Source: Candidatus Coatesiibacteriota bacterium (GTDB lineage Bacteria > RBG-13-66-14 > B26-G2 > WVWN01 > G020348885). Taken from it: a stretch of DNA of 44,667 nucleotides. The number at the start of each line of letters is the position of its first letter. Within the stretch, counting starts at the first letter, position 1. Under the pieces are notes generated by a model. The model was given only the letters and a program-made list of their open reading frames with translations. It had not been told where the DNA came from and ran no database searches. Positions 2,643 through 18,219 of the stretch are shown piece by piece. The position numbers were made by a program, and so were the translations under genes. The DNA is taken from contig CP070755.1 of the NCBI GenBank assembly GCA_020348885.1, positions 2,360,352 through 2,405,018 on the forward strand. Direction: 5' to 3'.

Positions 2643-2882
2643 CTACTCGGTTTCTTCTTCGGGTTCTTCGGCTTCGGTTGCTCCGCCTCTTTTGACGTTG
2701 ACCGCTTGAGGTCCCTTTTCGCCCTCGGCGATTTCGAACTCCACCAGTTCACCTTCCGCGAGGGTTTTGAAACCCTCGCCTTCTATGGCGGTGTGATGGA
2801 CGAATACGTCGTCGGCGCCTTCTACCTCAATAAAACCGTACCCCTTCGAGTCGTTAAACCATTTGACTCTTCCCTGTACCAT
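2643..2882 (-). CDS. Cold-shock domain protein (CspA family)
   Basis: This is a small single-stranded nucleic-acid-binding protein that acts as an RNA chaperone. Residues 1-66 form one OB-fold cold-shock domain with both RNP motifs visible: KGYGFI (RNP1) and DVFVHHTAI (RNP2, with the VFVHH core). A tail rich in Glu (about residues 68-79) follows, which is unusual for minimal Csp proteins of about 67 aa. The gene is a single transcription unit with a strong terminator immediately downstream. The best upstream promoter lies about 240 bp before the ATG, implying a long 5' leader as in several cold-inducible csp genes. No strong Shine-Dalgarno is visible. Confidence 0.92.
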
Positions 2883-3129
2883 AAAGCTATACCGCCCGCC
2901 GCTCGGCGAATCGTGCGAACATTTCGGCCGATACCATTGGATGCGGTCAAAGACGCTAACAGATAAGCCGATACTACATACTGTACCCCGAACTCACGGC
3001 GGCCGCGCCGCTTGCGGTCAACGTACCTGATTAACGAACGTCGGGGACGTAACAACCGGCTTAACGCGTCTTCCGGGCGGTTACTTTCACCTCCAACAAA
3101 ACTCCGGTACCCGACCGCTTATTGCGGAT

Positions 3130-3158
3130 ATTGTATCAATCTTTAATCCGGAAATCAA
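3130..3158 (-). promoter_or_regulatory. Promoter for the cold-shock gene, far upstream
   Basis: On the minus strand TTGATT (3153-3158) and TACAAT (3130-3135) are separated by 17 bp. Transcription would start near 3123, leaving a leader of about 240 nt before the Csp start at 2882. The rest of the 2883-3448 interval (about 290 bp towards the kinase gene) holds no gene that I can support. Confidence 0.6.
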
Positions 3159-3448
3159 GTTATATTTAAGGTTTAAAACGTAGGCTGTCCAATGGACGTT
3201 AAAGAGTTGGAAAAGGGTTAAAAAGAAACGACCGAAGAAGCCGAGGGTTGCGGGCTACCGGTTTGATAAACAACGGTACTTAGGCGGCTCTTTCGCCGAC
3301 GTTATCGTACTACCACCGTTCCCAATACACCGTCGCGCCGTTATACCTTGTTCTATTCCTCGGTTCCGATTGCGTGGGTACTTTAACCGGGGGAAACCAC
3401 GTCGTTAACCTGCACGTTTCGTATTTCTATCTTCGCGATATCCCTTCA

Positions 3449-4387
3449 TTAATCGACGATTCTTTCATAGGAATCGATGATTCTTTCCCAGGCGGGCGAC
3501 GTCGACGTTTCTACGAGGCCGGCCAATTCCTTAAGCCTGAAGTCGACCCCCGGCTCGTAATCGTTTTCAATTGCCCACAGAATACGGCCTATCGTGTGGC
3601 ATTCATGATAGAAGTGGAGCCTTTCAAGTAGAGACCGGCGATTACCGTCGTAATAGTATTCAAGGAAGATATCCATGAAATCCACGCCGAAGTCGTCGTA
3701 GAGGTACATCAGATCCTCGATGCCGTCGCCTATAATCATGTCCGAAAAATCGATGATGCCGGTTATCTCCCTTCGTTCGGGGTCGAACAGAATATGCTCG
3801 GCGGATAAGTCGTCGTGCATGAGTACCGGCGAGAAATCGGGTTCGGTGTTCTCGTCGAATATCTTTTCTATATAATCGCGAACCCTTTGATCGACCAAAG
3901 GGTAAATAAGTTCGCGGCTTTTCTCCAGGTGGCGGCGGTTTTCTTTTCCGTAGTCGCGTTCCTCGATTTCTGCCTGCCGGGCTTTCTCGATATTAAACGA
4001 ATGCAACTGCTGGAGAAATTGACTAATGGTCTCGGCGAAGCGACGTTGGTCATTCGGCGCCGAGTCGAAGAAACGTTCAGCCGATATAGGAATTCCCGGT
4101 ATCTTGGGGTAACAAATAAAAGTATAGCCCTCATCACCGTACCGACCGGAGCGCGATATGTCCGGGATGGGGATATCGATCGGTTTGACAAAATGGGGGA
4201 GGAGGTTCGCTTCGCGAGACAGGAACTCCGAGCCTTCGGGGTTGAGGGCGAAAAGAATCATCAACTCGTCGTTGACGGCGTATGCGCGCGCGAAATCGCC
4301 TTCACCGATAAACTCGATGGTCTCGACTTCCAGTTCGGGATAGGCGCGGGCAAGGTCTTGTTTCGCTTTATCCAGATTCGCGTTCAC
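3449..4387 (-). CDS. APH-family (aminoglycoside phosphotransferase-like) kinase
   Basis: 312 aa with the choline/aminoglycoside kinase fold, resembling the APH(2'')-like branch (GYTFICYPKIPGIPI near residues 88-101). The catalytic loop is HDDLSAEHIL (191-200), with Asp193 as the likely base and His198 at the position often occupied by Asn. The Mg-binding motif is IIDFSD (Asp213). At the N-lobe position where relatives have Phe-Pro-Lys this protein reads Phe-Ala-Leu (about residues 46-48), so the nucleotide-binding Lys may be missing. The start is GTG. The C-terminus repeats ERIID-ERIVD, encoded by an imperfect 21-bp tandem repeat at about 3452-3492. The gene is AT-richer than its neighbours and lies 52 bp downstream of a methyltransferase. 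Substrate unknown; no resistance claim is justified. Confidence 0.75.
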   Translation of the reverse strand: MNANLDKAKQDLARAYPELEVETIEFIGEGDFARAYAVNDELMILFALNPEGSEFLSREANLLPHFVKPIDIPIPDISRSGRYGDEGYTFICYPKIPGIPISAERFFDSAPNDQRRFAETISQFLQQLHSFNIEKARQAEIEERDYGKENRRHLEKSRELIYPLVDQRVRDYIEKIFDENTEPDFSPVLMHDDLSAEHILFDPERREITGIIDFSDMIIGDGIEDLMYLYDDFGVDFMDIFLEYYYDGNRRSLLERLHFYHECHTIGRILWAIENDYEPGVDFRLKELAGLVETSTSPAWERIIDSYERIVD

Positions 4388-5289: not shown

Positions 5290-6282
5290 TTAGGTGTTCG
5301 CGGACGCCCCGCCCTCCTCTTTCTCGAGGAATTCCCTCCAACCCGAGCGCGTTTCGCCGCTACCCCACTGTACGGCTTTGAGTTGCCCCGCGCGTAGCAA
5401 CGAAGCCAGGAAAGACGCGAGAAACACCTTAACGTCGTCCGTCTTACCCAGGAGTCCGTAGATCTTCGCCCCGATTTCGCCGCCGGGTTTCGTTTTCCCC
5501 GTTACCCAACCCTCTATCGGCGCGAGATACTTCTCGATGGTATCCGCCCGCTCCAGGCCGTCGGTTCCGCGGAGGGGCATCTCGGCGCGCCACTCGCCGG
5601 CGCCTATAGAGGAGAGGATTATGTCGTAACGGCGGAACACCTTGTGGTGGCAGGGATTAAGCCTACCGTCGCCTTCCCCGGCGAGGGCGTTGAGAATCCT
5701 CGCTTCCGGGTCGAGTTTACGTATCTCGGTCTCGAGGGCTTCCGCCGCGGCCTTATGGGCCTTCATCTGGGCGGATTCGGCGTTAGGGTAGCCGGAGAGC
5801 CAGAACTCCAAACAACGCGCGAACCGCTCAGCGTAGAGTTCTTTCAACGGGTCTCGCTCGCCCAGCATGTCCTGTACGCGGCGTTGGGTTTCGCCGTCGG
5901 CGTCGAGTTCCTTAAGGAGTACCTCGTAACTCGCCCGTACCGGCCTGGGAAGCCACATCCGCAGGGCGAGGTAATAGGCCCACACTCTTCGCCACCGCTC
6001 CTCGTCGATCGACGCCATGTGGCCGATGGGAATCGTGGCCGGTTTCTTTTTCCCGATCGCCTCGCACAGCGCCAGGATGCTACGTTCGAGGTTCCAGTTG
6101 CATAATTCGAGCGCTGCGATCTGCTCGATTAGTTCTTTACCCGCTTCGTTTATCGAATCGGCTTTCTCCCACAGGGGCTTCAGCCTGGCGTACTCTTCCG
6201 CAGCTTCCTCGTCGCTTAACGCCGCCCAGCGGTGTCCGGCGAATATTTCCTCTTCCCACCTCTCGCGTGCGGGAGTTTCCAT
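5290..6282 (-). CDS. Hypothetical protein, unrecognised
   Basis: 330 aa from ATG 6282, which has a GGAGG ribosome site 7 bases upstream; a GTG at 6297 is in frame but would lie before that site. The protein is soluble, with no signal peptide or membrane segment. It is mostly predicted helical and rich in Glu, Ala, Arg and Trp (for example ALCEAIGKKK, RRVWAYYLALRMWLPRP). A Cys-His-His cluster (NPCHHKVFRRYD) lies in the C-terminal half. I do not recognise a family. It stands between the HIT remnant and the nitroreductase on the same strand, with about 145 bp separating it from the latter. GC-rich like the local chromosome. Confidence 0.65.
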   Translation of the reverse strand: METPARERWEEEIFAGHRWAALSDEEAAEEYARLKPLWEKADSINEAGKELIEQIAALELCNWNLERSILALCEAIGKKKPATIPIGHMASIDEERWRRVWAYYLALRMWLPRPVRASYEVLLKELDADGETQRRVQDMLGERDPLKELYAERFARCLEFWLSGYPNAESAQMKAHKAAAEALETEIRKLDPEARILNALAGEGDGRLNPCHHKVFRRYDIILSSIGAGEWRAEMPLRGTDGLERADTIEKYLAPIEGWVTGKTKPGGEIGAKIYGLLGKTDDVKVFLASFLASLLRAGQLKAVQWGSGETRSGWREFLEKEEGGASANT

Positions 6283-6426
6283 AATGGCCTCCTCCACTCC
6301 AAGGTTAAACCCGGCCGCGGTACGTTTCGGCTGGCATCGAATCCGGGACCGGCGGTTTTAAAAGTATATTTTTATCTTAGTTGGTTCGTAAATAACGGCA
6401 CTGGGAGTTAAATATTACGTAACGTT

Positions 6427-12990: not shown

Positions 12991-13125
12991 ATGGAAGAGT
13001 TGATTAGATACTTCGCGAAACTTACAAAAGAGAAATTCTATGGGTCGGTCGAGGTTAAGTTCGAGGCCGGGCGTATTACAATTATCAGGGTCAACAGGAC
13101 AATCAAGCTCGAGGATTTAAGATGA
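12991..13125 (+). CDS. Small DUF2292-like protein (44 aa)
   Basis: A 44-codon gene beginning MEELIRYFAKLTKEKFYGSV and ending in a basic strand (RITIIRVNRTIKLEDLR). The pattern of a short helix, YGSV-x-V, an EAGRI turn and a final strand with IxRVxxTIKL matches the small bacterial family DUF2292, as I remember it (GSVxIxVQDGxVVQIExxEKIR). Function unknown. GGAG lies 7 bases before the ATG, and a near-consensus promoter lies 45 bp upstream, so this is a real gene despite its size. Its last 9 bp overlap the end of the convergent radical SAM gene. Confidence 0.65.
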   Translation: MEELIRYFAKLTKEKFYGSVEVKFEAGRITIIRVNRTIKLEDLR

Positions 13126-14580
13126 TCGCTCGGATTTTCGCTTCCTACCCGCCAACCCTTTCAGCCCGAGTTTTAGAAACCTACTCAATTCGCGGTATCT
13201 CAGTAAGAGTTTCAATTTGAATATAAGGAAACTCAACGAGAAAACCCGCGACAGGATGTATCGGAGCCGCAAGCGTCTGAGTTCGCGGACGCCCAGTTGC
13301 GGTTGGAGTAGTATCGGCACGTTGTCGGCCGGCCGGAACAGCCGCAAATTATCCCGATTCTCGTACGGCGCGGACCACCGGAAACCAGCCGGGAGTAGGT
13401 CGTTCTCCCGGGCGTATTCTTCCACCCGGGTCCCCGGGTATATCCTTATCGCCGGGCCGTACCCCACCAGGGTTATGCGTTTCCTGTTCCTTCTAATAAA
13501 CCTGAGTGTATCCTTCCCCGCGGCGTAAGTTTCGCCTATGTGCCCGACGGTGAAGAAGACCTTCGTACGAATGCCTAGGTCCTCGGCCCATCTCAGGAGT
13601 TCCTCTGCGTCGTCCAACGTTATGCCTTTTCCCATCTCGGCAAGTACCGACTGGTCTCCCGACTCTACGCCTAAATCTATATAGTAGCAGCCCGCCTCCC
13701 GCATGCGCTCGAGAAGCGATCTATCGACGGTTCCGACGCGGACCTCGCACTCCCAGGGTATTGCCAGACCCCGTCGCTCCAACTCGTCGCAGAACCCCAG
13801 GAAGTGCTTTTTGTTGAGGGTGAAAGTGCTATCGAAAATCTTTAACCCTTCTATACTATACTTCTCGACCAGCCCTTCGACCTCGTCGACAACCCTCGCC
13901 AGCGAACGGGTCGCGTACGATCTACCGTACATCTTCGAAGCAGAACAGAAGGAGCAAGCTACCGGGCAGCCCCGGGCCGTGACAACGGACGTCGCCGGAA
14001 GCCCCAAGTATTCCAGCTCCATCGCATAGCGGTCCATTGGAACCAGGTCCCGGGCCGGTTCCGGCAGGGCGTCCAGGTCGTCGTTGAAGGGGCGCCACCC
14101 TGTCGAAACGACGCGCCCGTCGGAGCGATAAGCGATTCCTTTTATTTCCGCAAGCTTTTCCGCGTTCCCGCCGGCTTCTTTCCAACGCGCCAGTTCAAGC
14201 GACGTAAACTCGCCTTCGCCATGTACAATTATGTCGACGTCTTCGATGTTATTTAGAGTGTCGTCGGCGGTGAAGGACGCGTGGGGCCCGCCGTATACGA
14301 CGGTGGTCGGCGGGTACGCTTCTTTAACTTGTGCAGCCCGGTCGAAGGCTTCGAAGCGGGAGTGGCTCGTTCCGCCTATCAGGGTGAGGGCCGGTTCCAA
14401 CTCCTCGGCCAGAGCGCCGACGTCTACGTCCTCGACCTGTTCGTCTACGAAGCGGACCGGGTATCCTGCCTCGCGTAGAACTGCCGCGATCCAGAGCGTA
14501 CCGAGCGGCGGCATAAGGTCGAAGATTTTCGACTCGGCCACTTCTGGGTATACGGCAAGGATGTTAGGTTTCGGCGCCAT
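13117..14580 (-). CDS. B12-binding-type radical SAM protein
   Basis: 487 aa. The N-terminal half (1-150) has the cobalamin-binding Rossmann pattern (PPLGTLWIAAVLREAGYPV, GGPHASFTAD, GEGE). The radical SAM core carries the 4Fe-4S motif CPVACSFC (Cys205, Cys209, Cys212). The DxHxxG B12-ligand motif is not visible, as in many members. The C-terminal tail (about 425-487) is very basic and hydrophobic, possibly membrane-associated. Family members perform methylations, ring rearrangements and lipid modifications; the substrate is unknown. Its ATG lies inside the end of the upstream methyltransferase gene (17-bp overlap), so the two are translationally coupled and probably act in one pathway. Confidence 0.85.
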   Translation of the reverse strand: MAPKPNILAVYPEVAESKIFDLMPPLGTLWIAAVLREAGYPVRFVDEQVEDVDVGALAEELEPALTLIGGTSHSRFEAFDRAAQVKEAYPPTTVVYGGPHASFTADDTLNNIEDVDIIVHGEGEFTSLELARWKEAGGNAEKLAEIKGIAYRSDGRVVSTGWRPFNDDLDALPEPARDLVPMDRYAMELEYLGLPATSVVTARGCPVACSFCSASKMYGRSYATRSLARVVDEVEGLVEKYSIEGLKIFDSTFTLNKKHFLGFCDELERRGLAIPWECEVRVGTVDRSLLERMREAGCYYIDLGVESGDQSVLAEMGKGITLDDAEELLRWAEDLGIRTKVFFTVGHIGETYAAGKDTLRFIRRNRKRITLVGYGPAIRIYPGTRVEEYARENDLLPAGFRWSAPYENRDNLRLFRPADNVPILLQPQLGVRELRRLRLRYILSRVFSLSFLIFKLKLLLRYRELSRFLKLGLKGLAGRKRKSERSS

Positions 14581-15235
14581 CTTCGTCGGTAAGTTTCACG
14601 AAGTTCATAGTGAACGCGAGCCACGTACCGAAGGCCCGGTCTAATCGAAACCCGGCGCTTTCGGCCAGTCCCATAACCGTCCGGCGGGTCAAGTAGTCCG
14701 GGTCGAGAATCATCTCGGTGACCGAGAGTACGCCGCCGGGCTTTAGCGAGCGGTGGATTTCGGCCAAAGCCGCCGCCCGGCCGGGAACCTCGCCCAGGAC
14801 AGTGACGAGAAGCGCCCGGTCGAACTCGTCAGTATAGCCGACGAGCGAACCGTCGCCCAGACCCCCTTCCAGCGTAACGACGTTCGCGAGCCGTTCCGAA
14901 TCCGTTTTCGCCGCGACCTTCGCCAGCATCTTCGATTGGACATCCAGAGCGACGACGGTTCCGTCGGCCCCGACGGCCCGGGCCGCCGGTATCGTCAGGC
15001 GACCCGGGCCGCATCCTGCGTCGAGTACCTTCATGCCCTGTTCGATACCCGCCCGTTCGATGACGAGATCGGCCCCGGCGAAGAGACGAGTATAAGGGTT
15101 GTACAGTATCCAGGAGAAGCTCGCCGGGCAGGGTTTGCCGCGCTTCCCGACGGCGTACCGCAATGTCAGGCCGGCGGTTATCAAAACCCCCAGGAACGCA
15201 AACCCAAGGAAAAGGCCCGTATCAAAGTTCGACAT
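14564..15235 (-). CDS. Membrane-anchored class I methyltransferase
   Basis: 223 aa. One N-terminal membrane segment (about 5-27), then a class I SAM fold with VLDAGCGPGRLTIPAA (motif I), VVALDVQ at strand 2, and LKPGGVLSVTEMI after motif III. Resembles UbiE/MenG-type and lipid methyltransferases, but the substrate is unknown. It overlaps the downstream radical SAM gene by 17 bp. Together they suggest modification of a membrane-embedded lipid or quinone (inference). Confidence 0.8.
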   Translation of the reverse strand: MSNFDTGLFLGFAFLGVLITAGLTLRYAVGKRGKPCPASFSWILYNPYTRLFAGADLVIERAGIEQGMKVLDAGCGPGRLTIPAARAVGADGTVVALDVQSKMLAKVAAKTDSERLANVVTLEGGLGDGSLVGYTDEFDRALLVTVLGEVPGRAAALAEIHRSLKPGGVLSVTEMILDPDYLTRRTVMGLAESAGFRLDRAFGTWLAFTMNFVKLTDEDGAET

Positions 15236-15330: not shown

Positions 15331-16296
15331 TTAGTTCAGTCTTCGTAATTCCACGTCGGACGTACTTGTAAGCGCGTAGGTGATAAGCAGGTTGTCGGTA
15401 TCGGTAGGCCCGGGGCAGGACGCGCCGATGAGCGTTGGCTGGACGTAGAGGGGCGTACCGCCCCCGAACTGCCGGCCCAGAAACGTCCGGTTGGCTTTCG
15501 CCCAAACGGCGTATCTCATCAACTCGCGCCGGGCGGCCCGGCCGGCGGCTCCGGACTTCAGTTCGATAATATACAGGGTCGAACCAGATTTATAGACCAG
15601 GTCAATCCTGCTCCTTTCCGAAGGGACGCGGAGCTGGTTCCATACCACGCCGCCGTCGCCGAGGATACCGCCCAGGCGGTCGCCCCGCGCGAGGACGTAC
15701 TCGACGAAACTCTCGCCTACCTTTTCGTTCGCGGCCAATTCCTCCAGGCCCGCGCAGTCGAGAGTTTTTCCGCCGGTTATATCAACCGGGTCGGCTTCGG
15801 GGAGAATCGTTTCCTGCCACGGTAACTCGCCGACGGCCGTCAGGATTCTAGGGCGGTCGGCCGGGAGGAACGTGAAGACGCTTCGGTTGATTACGTCCTC
15901 GGGGAAGAAAGCTACATCCAGGTCCCGGGCCAGTTCGTACAACGATTCGACGGGCGCCGACGCGGGTTCGGCCCGCGGCTCGACGCGGAAGACCACCCTG
16001 AACCGTTCCCGGCCGGTCTCCTGTTCCCGCTCCCATATCGGCGGTTCGCCTTCCAGGGGAAGGTACGTAGGGTCGCCGGCCACGTCGTAGGGGCCGTATA
16101 CCCTACCTTTGACTTTCGAGAAAAGATAGGCGCGGTCGCCGGGGCGGACTCCCGCGATCTGATTAATCGCCGCCGGGTGGACGCCGTAAAGCCGCGCGAC
16201 ATGGCATTTCTCCAGATGCCGGCCGGTTATCAATATGTGGAGTTTCGATTTCAAATTCTTAGGATGTCCGTGCCTAACTACGGTTAAGAATAACAC
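15331..16296 (-). CDS. EVE/DCD-like domain fused to a PD-(D/E)XK nuclease domain
   Basis: 321 aa, no signal peptide. Residues 19-106 look like a PUA-superfamily EVE/DCD-type domain: VRPGDRAYLF (50-59), RVYGPYDVAGDP (65-76), PPIW (85-88) and RFRVVFRVEP (98-107). Residues 185-290 look like a PD-(D/E)XK nuclease core: Glu195 or Glu199 in a helix, Asp232 in RSRIDLVYKSG, then IIELKSG with Glu245 and Lys247, and a basic helix (RRELMRYAVW). EVE domains in other proteins bind modified bases, and the nuclease half resembles RecB/NucS-like cores. An inference is a nuclease guided by modified DNA or RNA, for defence or repair. The GTG start is weakly supported; a shorter start near residue 15-18 is possible. 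No methylase or helicase partner adjoins it. Confidence 0.6.
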   Translation of the reverse strand: MLFLTVVRHGHPKNLKSKLHILITGRHLEKCHVARLYGVHPAAINQIAGVRPGDRAYLFSKVKGRVYGPYDVAGDPTYLPLEGEPPIWEREQETGRERFRVVFRVEPRAEPASAPVESLYELARDLDVAFFPEDVINRSVFTFLPADRPRILTAVGELPWQETILPEADPVDITGGKTLDCAGLEELAANEKVGESFVEYVLARGDRLGGILGDGGVVWNQLRVPSERSRIDLVYKSGSTLYIIELKSGAAGRAARRELMRYAVWAKANRTFLGRQFGGGTPLYVQPTLIGASCPGPTDTDNLLITYALTSTSDVELRRLN

Positions 16297-16345: not shown

Positions 16346-17158
16346 TTAAGAATCCATGCTGCCGCTTCTGAACCCGTCCAGGTCCAGCGTTATGTATCGG
16401 TAACCGATTTCGCGCAATCTGTCACGTATTTTCCTCGCGTTGGCCGATTCCGTTACGACCTGGAAGTCGCCGGGTTCGACCTCGACCCGGGCTAATCCGT
16501 CAGGATATGTCCTGACCCTGACCTGTTTGACGCCGAGCGAGCGTATGAGGGCTTCGGCCTCGGAGACGCGTTCCAGCAACCCGACCGTCAGTTCCGTATC
16601 GTACGGGATCCGCGTCGCCAGGCACCCGCTCGGCGGGGCGTCCCAGCCGGGAACGCCCAACTCCCGGCCCAGACAACGTACGTCGGCCTTCGTGAACCCG
16701 ACGTCGAGTAAAGGGCTTTCGACGCTCAACTCGCGGCAGGCTCGGAGCCCCGGTCGCACCCCCGACGCCTCGTCCGCGGTGGTCCCCTCGGCCACCGCCG
16801 AGAGATTCTCCTCGGCGGCCAAGGCGACGAGCCGTTTCATGAGGCCTGACTTACAGATATAACACCGCTCTCTCGGATTGAGTCTGAAAGCAGGGTTCTC
16901 CATCTCGTCGGTCTTCACGAAGACGTGCTCTACCCCGAGGTAACGGGCGCCCGTCTCGGCAGCTTCCTCCTCGTGCGGTGGATGGAGGGGCGACCTGGCC
17001 GTTACCGCGAGTACCCTGCCGTCCACGCGTTCGGCGGCGGTCGCCAATAAAAACGAAGAGTCGGCGCCGCCCGAATACGCGACCAGAAGCGACGGATACG
17101 CCGCTAACGCCTCGGTAAGGCGTATATACTTCTTTTCCGCCTTTCGCGGGTCAGTCAT
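16346..17158 (-). CDS. larE: LarE-like sulfur transferase
   Basis: 270 aa. PP-loop ATPase motif SGGADSSFLL (29-38) and the family segment PPSGCLATRIPYD (175-187). LarE adenylates pyridinium biscarboxylic acid mononucleotide and donates sulfur to build the nickel-pincer cofactor of lactate racemase-type enzymes. Three cysteines (Cys99 and Cys102 in CYIC, and Cys179) match the subgroup proposed to use a 4Fe-4S cluster to carry sulfur, rather than the sacrificial single-Cys type. No larA, larB or larC is in the window. It sits 8 bp behind mnmA, another PP-loop sulfur-transfer enzyme, probably in one operon. Confidence 0.85.
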   Translation of the reverse strand: MTDPRKAEKKYIRLTEALAAYPSLLVAYSGGADSSFLLATAAERVDGRVLAVTARSPLHPPHEEEAAETGARYLGVEHVFVKTDEMENPAFRLNPRERCYICKSGLMKRLVALAAEENLSAVAEGTTADEASGVRPGLRACRELSVESPLLDVGFTKADVRCLGRELGVPGWDAPPSGCLATRIPYDTELTVGLLERVSEAEALIRSLGVKQVRVRTYPDGLARVEVEPGDFQVVTESANARKIRDRLREIGYRYITLDLDGFRSGSMDS

Positions 17159-17166
17159 CTCCGACC

Positions 17167-18219
17167 TTAATCATCCCATACGACCGACTCTATCACGGCG
17201 CCGCCCATCAATACGTCGCCTCGGTAGAAGACCACCGATTGGCCGGGGGCGACGGCCCTCCGCGGTTCGCCGAAGTCGACGATGAGACGGTCGCCGTCTA
17301 TTTCGACCGTGGCCGGCGCCCCCGGGTCCCGGTAGCGTACGTGCGCCGATACGCTGTCGCTGCTTCCGGGCGGCTCGGCCAGCCAATTGGCGCCGGTCGC
17401 CGTCAGGCGGGACGCGTACATGTCCCCGGCAGGCGCCACCACGAGCCTGTTCTCGGCCGGTATAATCTCCCGGACGTACATCGGCTCGCCGGTGGCGACG
17501 CCCAGGCCCCGGCGCCGCCCTATCGTATGGGAACCGAGGCCGTCGTGCTCCCCCAATATCTTTCCCTCGACGTCGGTAACGGGACCGGGCTTCGCTTTTA
17601 TCGTTTCGGCGAGGAAAACCTCGACGTCTTCGCCGACGAAGCAGACGTCCTGGCTTTCGGGCCGTATGTCGGCGTCGGGCAGGAACTCGCCTGCGACGCG
17701 CCTGACCTGACCCTTTGTATATCCGCCTACCGGGAAGTATAAACGCCCTAGCGCCGCCGCCGGCGTTCCCCACAAAAAGTAAGTCTGGTCCTTCGCCCGG
17801 TCGGCGGCCTTCGATATAACGGTCTTATCGTCGTTCAGGCGCGCGTAGTGGCCGGTGGCCAGGCCGTCGAAGCCCGTTACTCTGGCCTTTTTCAACAGTA
17901 CGTCGAATTTTATTATCGTATTACAGAGTACGCAAGGGTTGGGCGTGCGGCCGGATTCGTATTCGTCTATGAAGTCGTTTATTACCGATTCTTCGAATTC
18001 GCGGCGGAGGTCGAGTACGTAATGGTCCACGCCTATCCGCCGGGCTGTTTCGGCGGCGACCCGTAGCGCCTCCGGCGAACAACAACCCGCCCCACGCCTG
18101 GCCGTCGCGTCTAACAGGCGCATCGTTACGCCGACCACGTCGTGCCCCTCCCGCGCGAGTATGACCGCCGCCGCGGCGCTGTCCACGCCCCCCGACATCG
18201 CTACCATTATCCTGGCCAC
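17167..18219 (-). CDS. mnmA: tRNA-specific 2-thiouridylase
   Basis: Makes 2-thiouridine at wobble position 34 of Lys, Glu and Gln tRNAs using ATP and sulfur from a persulfide relay. 350 aa. PP-loop SGGVDS (9-14), NPCVLCN with catalytic Cys96, ATGHYAR, and the second catalytic Cys193 in SQDVCF, followed by the C-terminal beta-barrel segments (GRRRGLGVATGEPMYV). GTG start with AGGA just upstream. LarE follows 8 bp downstream. Confidence 0.96.
   Translation of the reverse strand: MARIMVAMSGGVDSAAAAVILAREGHDVVGVTMRLLDATARRGAGCCSPEALRVAAETARRIGVDHYVLDLRREFEESVINDFIDEYESGRTPNPCVLCNTIIKFDVLLKKARVTGFDGLATGHYARLNDDKTVISKAADRAKDQTYFLWGTPAAALGRLYFPVGGYTKGQVRRVAGEFLPDADIRPESQDVCFVGEDVEVFLAETIKAKPGPVTDVEGKILGEHDGLGSHTIGRRRGLGVATGEPMYVREIIPAENRLVVAPAGDMYASRLTATGANWLAEPPGSSDSVSAHVRYRDPGAPATVEIDGDRLIVDFGEPRRAVAPGQSVVFYRGDVLMGGAVIESVVWDD

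What the first reader, a model, noticed from the sequence alone, without database searches (positions are those of the whole stretch)
15331..16296. EVE/DCD-like reader fused to a PD-(D/E)XK nuclease
An N-terminal PUA-superfamily EVE/DCD-like domain followed by a RecB/NucS-like nuclease core (Asp232, Glu245, Lys247). EVE readers recognise modified bases in other systems, so this could be a single-gene modification-dependent nuclease. It lies beside larE and mnmA rather than a defence island.
Basis: partly seen in the sequence, partly recalled or inferred. Interest (0 to 1): 0.65.

Follow-up and report, generated by a model that had tools for sequence, protein, structure and literature searches.

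The report
EVE-like reader fused to NucS-type nuclease
In a poorly known bacterial phylum (Coatesbacteria), one gene joins a domain of the kind that recognises chemically altered DNA or RNA bases to a DNA-cutting domain, so it probably cuts nucleic acid carrying such bases; this kind of fusion is already known, but here it is inherited like an ordinary household gene and sits in no defence cluster.

Summary
The finding holds up. The ORF at 15331-16296 is on the minus strand: 321 codons from a GTG, true start probably a TTG 14 codons in. It encodes two domains. The N-terminal half has an EVE-like, PUA-superfamily fold: PH1033 at VIA Z 13.3 on the model of a homologue and 8.8 on the window's own weaker model, with THYN1, VcaM4I and YTH further down. 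The C-terminal half is a PD-(D/E)XK nuclease nearest to NucS/EndoMS (Z 12.8 and 10.4). Glu199, Asp232, Glu245, Lys247 and Tyr262 are invariant in all six family members and spaced almost exactly as in NucS. The NucS Gln is Glu here.

Five homologues occur in two other families of the same class (Coatesbacteria-type). None were found in viral, phage or plasmid collections, nor in about 380 other genomes. The gene is under purifying selection (dN/dS about 0.2). Elsewhere it lies in a household operon (GSU2086 family, gmhA, hldE kinase) or alone. The mnmA/larE linkage occurs only here. No defence neighbours were found.

Best reading: a single-chain, modified-base-dependent endonuclease of type IV kind. 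A base-damage or quality-control nuclease is the main rival. DCD- and EVE-PD(D/E)XK fusions were published in 2020, so this is a new divergent member. Substrate and activity are untested.

The parts
15331..16296 (-). EVE-like reader/PD-(D/E)XK nuclease fusion gene, 321 codons from GTG 16296; likelier start TTG 16254-16252
   Evidence: ORF; homologues start near the residue aligned to window residue 18-19; GTG overlaps AAAGG; dN/dS about 0.2 in relatives
15817..16242 (-). EVE-like (PUA-superfamily) reader domain, residues about 19-160
   Evidence: PH1033 Z 13.3 over model residues 1-144 of homologue L013; PH1033 Z 8.8 over window residues 21-160; family profile hits UPF0310/EVE chains 2p5d E 0.012 and 1wmm E 0.54; DCD Pfam model sub-threshold
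15715..15816 (-). variable linker between reader and nuclease, residues about 161-194
   Evidence: least conserved part, 23-26% identity window to relatives; lower pLDDT in model
15352..15714 (-). PD-(D/E)XK nuclease core of NucS/EndoMS type, residues about 195-315
   Evidence: 2vld Z 10.4 on window model; 5gke Z 12.8 and 2vld Z 12.5 on homologue model; NERD Pfam model sub-threshold
15700..15702 (-). Glu199, motif I glutamate, 33 residues before Asp232 as E127-D160 in NucS
   Evidence: invariant in 6; NucS residues from PMC7343888
15601..15603 (-). Asp232, catalytic
   Evidence: invariant in 6
15556..15564 (-). Glu245-Leu-Lys247, ExK motif
   Evidence: invariant in 6
15511..15525 (-). Glu258...Tyr262, counterpart of the QxxxY motif; Gln in G005, Asp in four relatives, Glu here
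   Evidence: alignment
16346..17158 (-). larE (upstream neighbour, same strand)
   Evidence: TIGR00268 268.6 bits, cut-off 150
17167..18219 (-). mnmA (next upstream gene)
   Evidence: NF001138 376.6 bits, cut-off 284
14564..15235 (-). class I methyltransferase, small-molecule type (downstream neighbour)
   Evidence: Methyltransf_31/25/11
13117..14580 (-). B12-binding radical SAM protein
   Evidence: PF04055 and PF02310

Best explanation
A single-chain, modified-base-dependent endonuclease. Shown here: the two folds, the intact and conserved catalytic residues, and selection for function. Inferred from solved relatives: the EVE-like domain flips a modified base out of the nucleic acid into its pocket, as VcaM4I does with 5mC/5hmC and YTH domains do with m6A, and so places or releases the C-terminal NucS-like nuclease to cut the DNA nearby, using metal held by Glu199, Asp232, Glu245 and Lys247. 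The most likely role is restriction of DNA carrying a base the host does not make, i.e. a type IV-like enzyme that stands alone outside any defence cluster. Which base, and whether DNA or RNA, is not known.
For: Both folds found. The nearest full analogue by architecture is VcaM4I (6yex, Z 10.5 over residues 1-147 of the homologue model), in which an EVE domain, linker and nuclease give 5mC/5hmC-dependent cutting (PMC7897488). Catalytic residues are invariant and NucS-spaced. DCD-PD(D/E)XK and EVE-PD(D/E)XK fusions are predicted restriction enzymes in prokaryotes (PMC7641849). A separate classical EVE-NucS_C fusion exists in one relative. Purifying selection. Weak: none of the six carriers has a cytosine-C5 DNA methylase hit, while five of them have N6/N4 methylases.
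Against: No defence genes were recognised nearby in the six genomes examined. Inherited vertically at nearly the rate of household neighbours. Absence of PF00145 is not significant: only 33 of 98 genomes have it, and most non-carrier same-phylum genomes lack it too. No pocket residue was mapped atom by atom and no activity is shown.
Confidence: 0.55

Rival explanations
1. A genome-maintenance nuclease: the reader flips a damaged or misplaced base (deaminated, oxidised or mismatched) in the cell's own DNA, and the nuclease cuts beside it to start repair, as NucS/EndoMS does with mismatches.
For: The nuclease half is nearest to NucS/EndoMS. Vertical inheritance, slow evolution and household operons in f2 genomes. 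No phage, plasmid or viral copies found.
Against: MutS is present in all carriers and non-carriers, so it does not replace mismatch repair. The gene is missing from the eight other genomes of the phylum searched (G006-G013), so it is not universal housekeeping. EVE/YTH domains whose ligand is known bind enzymatic modifications rather than damage.
Confidence: 0.25
2. An RNA-directed nuclease that recognises a modified base in tRNA or mRNA, with the mnmA neighbour as a hint.
For: YTH and many EVE/PUA domains bind RNA (PMC7641849). mnmA lies two genes upstream.
Against: mnmA is on another contig or far away in all five other carriers. The nuclease half is nearest to DNA endonucleases.
Confidence: 0.12
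3. A non-cutting modified-base-binding protein with a relic or regulatory nuclease fold.
For: The Gln of the QxxxY motif is Glu in the window and Asp in four relatives.
Against: All four metal-binding and catalytic positions and Tyr262 are invariant, and dN/dS is about 0.2. The distant G005 member keeps the Gln.
Confidence: 0.08

Closest known systems
DCD-PD(D/E)XK and EVE-PD(D/E)XK fusions (Bell, Wolf and Koonin 2020, PMC7641849)
   Same: EVE-like reader joined to a PD-(D/E)XK nuclease in one chain
   Different: DCD is described there as mostly archaeal and hyperthermophile and, like fast-evolving EVE, in defence contexts. This family passes neither the EVE nor the DCD Pfam cut-off, is confined (as far as searched) to one class of Coatesbacteria, and lies in household surroundings.
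VcaM4I (EVE-HNH type IV endonuclease, 6yex)
   Same: N-terminal EVE domain of about 147 residues, linker, C-terminal nuclease
   Different: VcaM4I has an HNH nuclease; here it is PD-(D/E)XK of NucS type. The 5mC/5hmC preference is unproven here.
NucS/EndoMS (2vld, 5gke)
   Same: Nuclease fold and the spacing of E, D, ExK and Tyr residues
   Different: N-terminal half is EVE-like instead of the NucS domain; Gln replaced by Glu; no PF01939 or PRK04247 match to this protein.
YTH domains (m6A readers; YTH-McrB of Thermococcus gammatolerans)
   Same: Reader half has a YTH-related fold (Z about 9-10 on the homologue model)
   Different: Lower match than EVE proteins; aromatic cage not mapped; nuclease is in the same chain.
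Unnamed EVE/DCD-PD(D/E)XK protein in G051 (L046)
   Same: Same two-domain order outside the phylum; reader halves alignable (hhalign E 5e-4 over 122 columns)
   Different: Longer (374 codons), nuclease halves not aligned by hhalign, different taxon.

Membership tests
EVE-like / PUA superfamily reader | EVE-type fold over the whole domain | tested here: met
   PH1033 Z 13.3, 127 of 143 residues, on homologue model; PH1033 Z 8.8, 124 residues, on window model
EVE (Pfam PF01878) | score over curated sequence cut-off | tested here: not met
   not listed for the protein; no PF01878 match anywhere in G000
DCD (Pfam PF10539) | score over curated sequence cut-off | tested here: not met
   12.5 bits against cut-off 27.8
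EVE/YTH reader | aromatic/hydrophobic pocket that holds a flipped modified base | not testable with these tools
   model coordinates and residue-level structural alignment are not available; pocket residues of VcaM4I known from PMC7897488
PD-(D/E)XK nuclease | core strands plus D...ExK | tested here: met
NucS/EndoMS | E127-D160-E174-K176-Q187-Y191 constellation | tested here: inconclusive
   five of six positions conserved with nearly the same spacing; Gln is Glu in window, Asp in four relatives, Gln in G005
NucS/EndoMS | NucS sequence models (PF01939, PRK04247) | tested here: not met
   no PF01939 hit at any carrier's gene; no NCBIfam hit
NucS/EndoMS | NucS N-terminal domain | tested here: not met
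   N-terminal half is EVE-like
Type IV (modification-dependent) restriction enzyme | modified-base reader and nuclease in one system | tested here: met
   domain architecture
Type IV (modification-dependent) restriction enzyme | cuts modified but not plain DNA | not testable with these tools
   needs assay
Type IV (modification-dependent) restriction enzyme | defence-island or mobile context (usual, not strictly defining) | tested here: not met
   household neighbours; no phage, plasmid or viral copies found

The most novel reading that the evidence does not exclude
A vertically inherited, lineage-specific nuclease that uses an EVE-like pocket to find a damaged or endogenous altered base in the cell's own DNA and a NucS-type core to cut beside it: a base-flipping repair or quality-control nuclease rather than a restriction enzyme.
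Probability: 0.2. Interest if true: 0.65.

Novelty: new member of a known kind. Interest (0 to 1): 0.35.

Why it matters
It adds a family that passes no Pfam or NCBIfam cut-off to the small set of natural reader-nuclease fusions, with a NucS-type cutter. It is also inherited outside defence islands, so it is a clean case for asking whether EVE-like readers guide cutting of the cell's own DNA as well as of invaders. If its base specificity were found, it could serve as a tool for detecting that base.

Tried and rejected
Link to mnmA/larE as a functional unit: rejected, mnmA is unlinked in all five other carriers. Replacement for mismatch repair: rejected, MutS present in all 14 genomes of the phylum searched. 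5mC as the target from absence of C5 methylases: suggestive in carriers (0 of 6) but not above base rate (33 of 98 overall; 2 of 8 in same-phylum non-carriers), so not used. Membership by sequence in EVE, DCD, NERD, NucS: all below cut-off (the DCD genome search rang nowhere, controls included, so it shows nothing). PADLOC hits of family members to PDC-S candidates look like partial nuclease-core matches: for the window protein residues 227-267 only. Searches of viral contigs, phages, plasmids and E. coli genomes gave nothing.

Full report
What is there. The stretch 15331-16296 is one ORF on the minus strand, 321 codons from a GTG. The window is part of a 2.6 Mb single-contig genome. Matching records of relatives are titled Candidatus Coatesbacteria or Zixiibacteriota. 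The GTG overlaps the AAAGG that would be its own ribosome site, and homologues begin near the residue aligned to window residue 18-19. The start is therefore probably TTG 16254-16252, giving about 307 residues. This is inference.

Family. A protein search of 98 genomes found five homologues: four in one family of the same order (36-41% identity in alignment A1) and one in the same class (24%). A profile search of 386 genomes added only nuclease-core matches in other proteins. A pattern-based scan of 84,980 species genomes found only the same lineage. Viral contigs, phages and plasmids gave nothing. No NCBIfam or Pfam model passes its cut-off; NERD (17.8 against 22.1 bits) and DCD (12.5 against 27.8) are the only Pfam hints for the window protein.

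Reader half. The best model is that of the homologue from G002 (pLDDT 81.7, pTM 0.84). Its residues 1-144 match PH1033 at Z 13.3 (rmsd 2.1, 127 residues), MJECL36 at 12.7, VcaM4I at 10.5 and YTH domains at about 9-10. Foldseek's top rows for this model are EVE, VcaM4I and YTH chains. The window's own model is weaker there (first 38 residues below pLDDT 50) but still matches PH1033 at Z 8.8 over residues 21-160, then human THYN1 at 7.7. By sequence alone the family profile picks up MJECL36 at E 0.012. Neither the EVE nor the DCD sequence model passes its cut-off, so 'EVE-like' is the right name.

Nuclease half. Residues about 195-315 match NucS/EndoMS best in both models: Z 10.4 (2vld) and 10.2 (5gke) for the window, 12.5 and 12.8 for the homologue. 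Glu199, Asp232, Glu245, Lys247 and Tyr262 are invariant in six sequences. Spacing 33-13-2-11-4 compares with 33-14-2-11-4 for E127-D160-E174-K176-Q187-Y191 of Pyrococcus abyssi NucS (residues from PMC7343888). The Gln is Glu here, Asp in four relatives and Gln in G005.

Surroundings. In the window the order on the minus strand is mnmA, larE, this gene, a small-molecule-type methyltransferase, and a B12 radical SAM protein. In the four f2 genomes it lies tightly between a GSU2086-family gene and a gmhA-like isomerase, followed by the hldE kinase domain gene. In G005 it lies among unrelated genes. mnmA is elsewhere in all five. No clear defence gene was found among the neighbours scanned (the methyltransferase, radical SAM and TPR matches there are generic domain matches).

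Evolution. Between the f2 genomes the protein is 70-89% identical, against 72-93% for its neighbours, so it is only slightly faster. dN/dS is 0.18-0.23. A conserved reader suggests a constant target (inference). Bell et al. contrast slow-evolving household EVE domains with fast-evolving defence ones (PMC7641849), and by that yardstick this one is in between or on the slow side.

How it most likely works. The fold, catalytic residues and selection are shown; the target, base flipping and cutting are inferred. Host-methylation evidence is weak: no C5 cytosine methylase in six carriers, but that is near base rate, while five of the six carriers have N6/N4 methylases, which mildly argues against 6mA as the target.

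Known or new. DCD-PD(D/E)XK and EVE-PD(D/E)XK fusions were reported in 2020 (PMC7641849). This is a new, divergent, lineage-restricted member of that kind. The unusual point is the household, vertically inherited setting, which keeps a genome-maintenance reading open.

Noticed in passing
L044 (G002:C91 about 2680-3600, +): A separate classical fusion of a Pfam EVE domain with a NucS_C nuclease, 307 codons, in a same-order relative that also carries the window-type fusion.
   Followed up: partly
L046 (G051:C125, match at 6071-6409, -): A 374-codon EVE/DCD-like plus PD-(D/E)XK protein outside the phylum; its reader half aligns with this family.
   Followed up: partly
G000:C1:2089759-2090313 and 2518035-2518589: Two N6_Mtase (PF02384) matches with the same span and the same frame length (657), probably a duplicated methylase.
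   Followed up: no
G000:C1:135140-135700: MutS_V match in a frame of only 404 codons where most relatives have about 870: a possible frameshift or assembly error in this genome.
   Followed up: no
L009:8887-9837 and window 16346-17158: Neighbours of the fusion in two lineages both touch nickel-pincer-nucleotide biology: LarE in the window, and a GSU2086-family gene with a very weak similarity to NPN-dependent ornithine cyclodeaminase (E 7.7e-4) in f2. May be coincidence.
   Followed up: no
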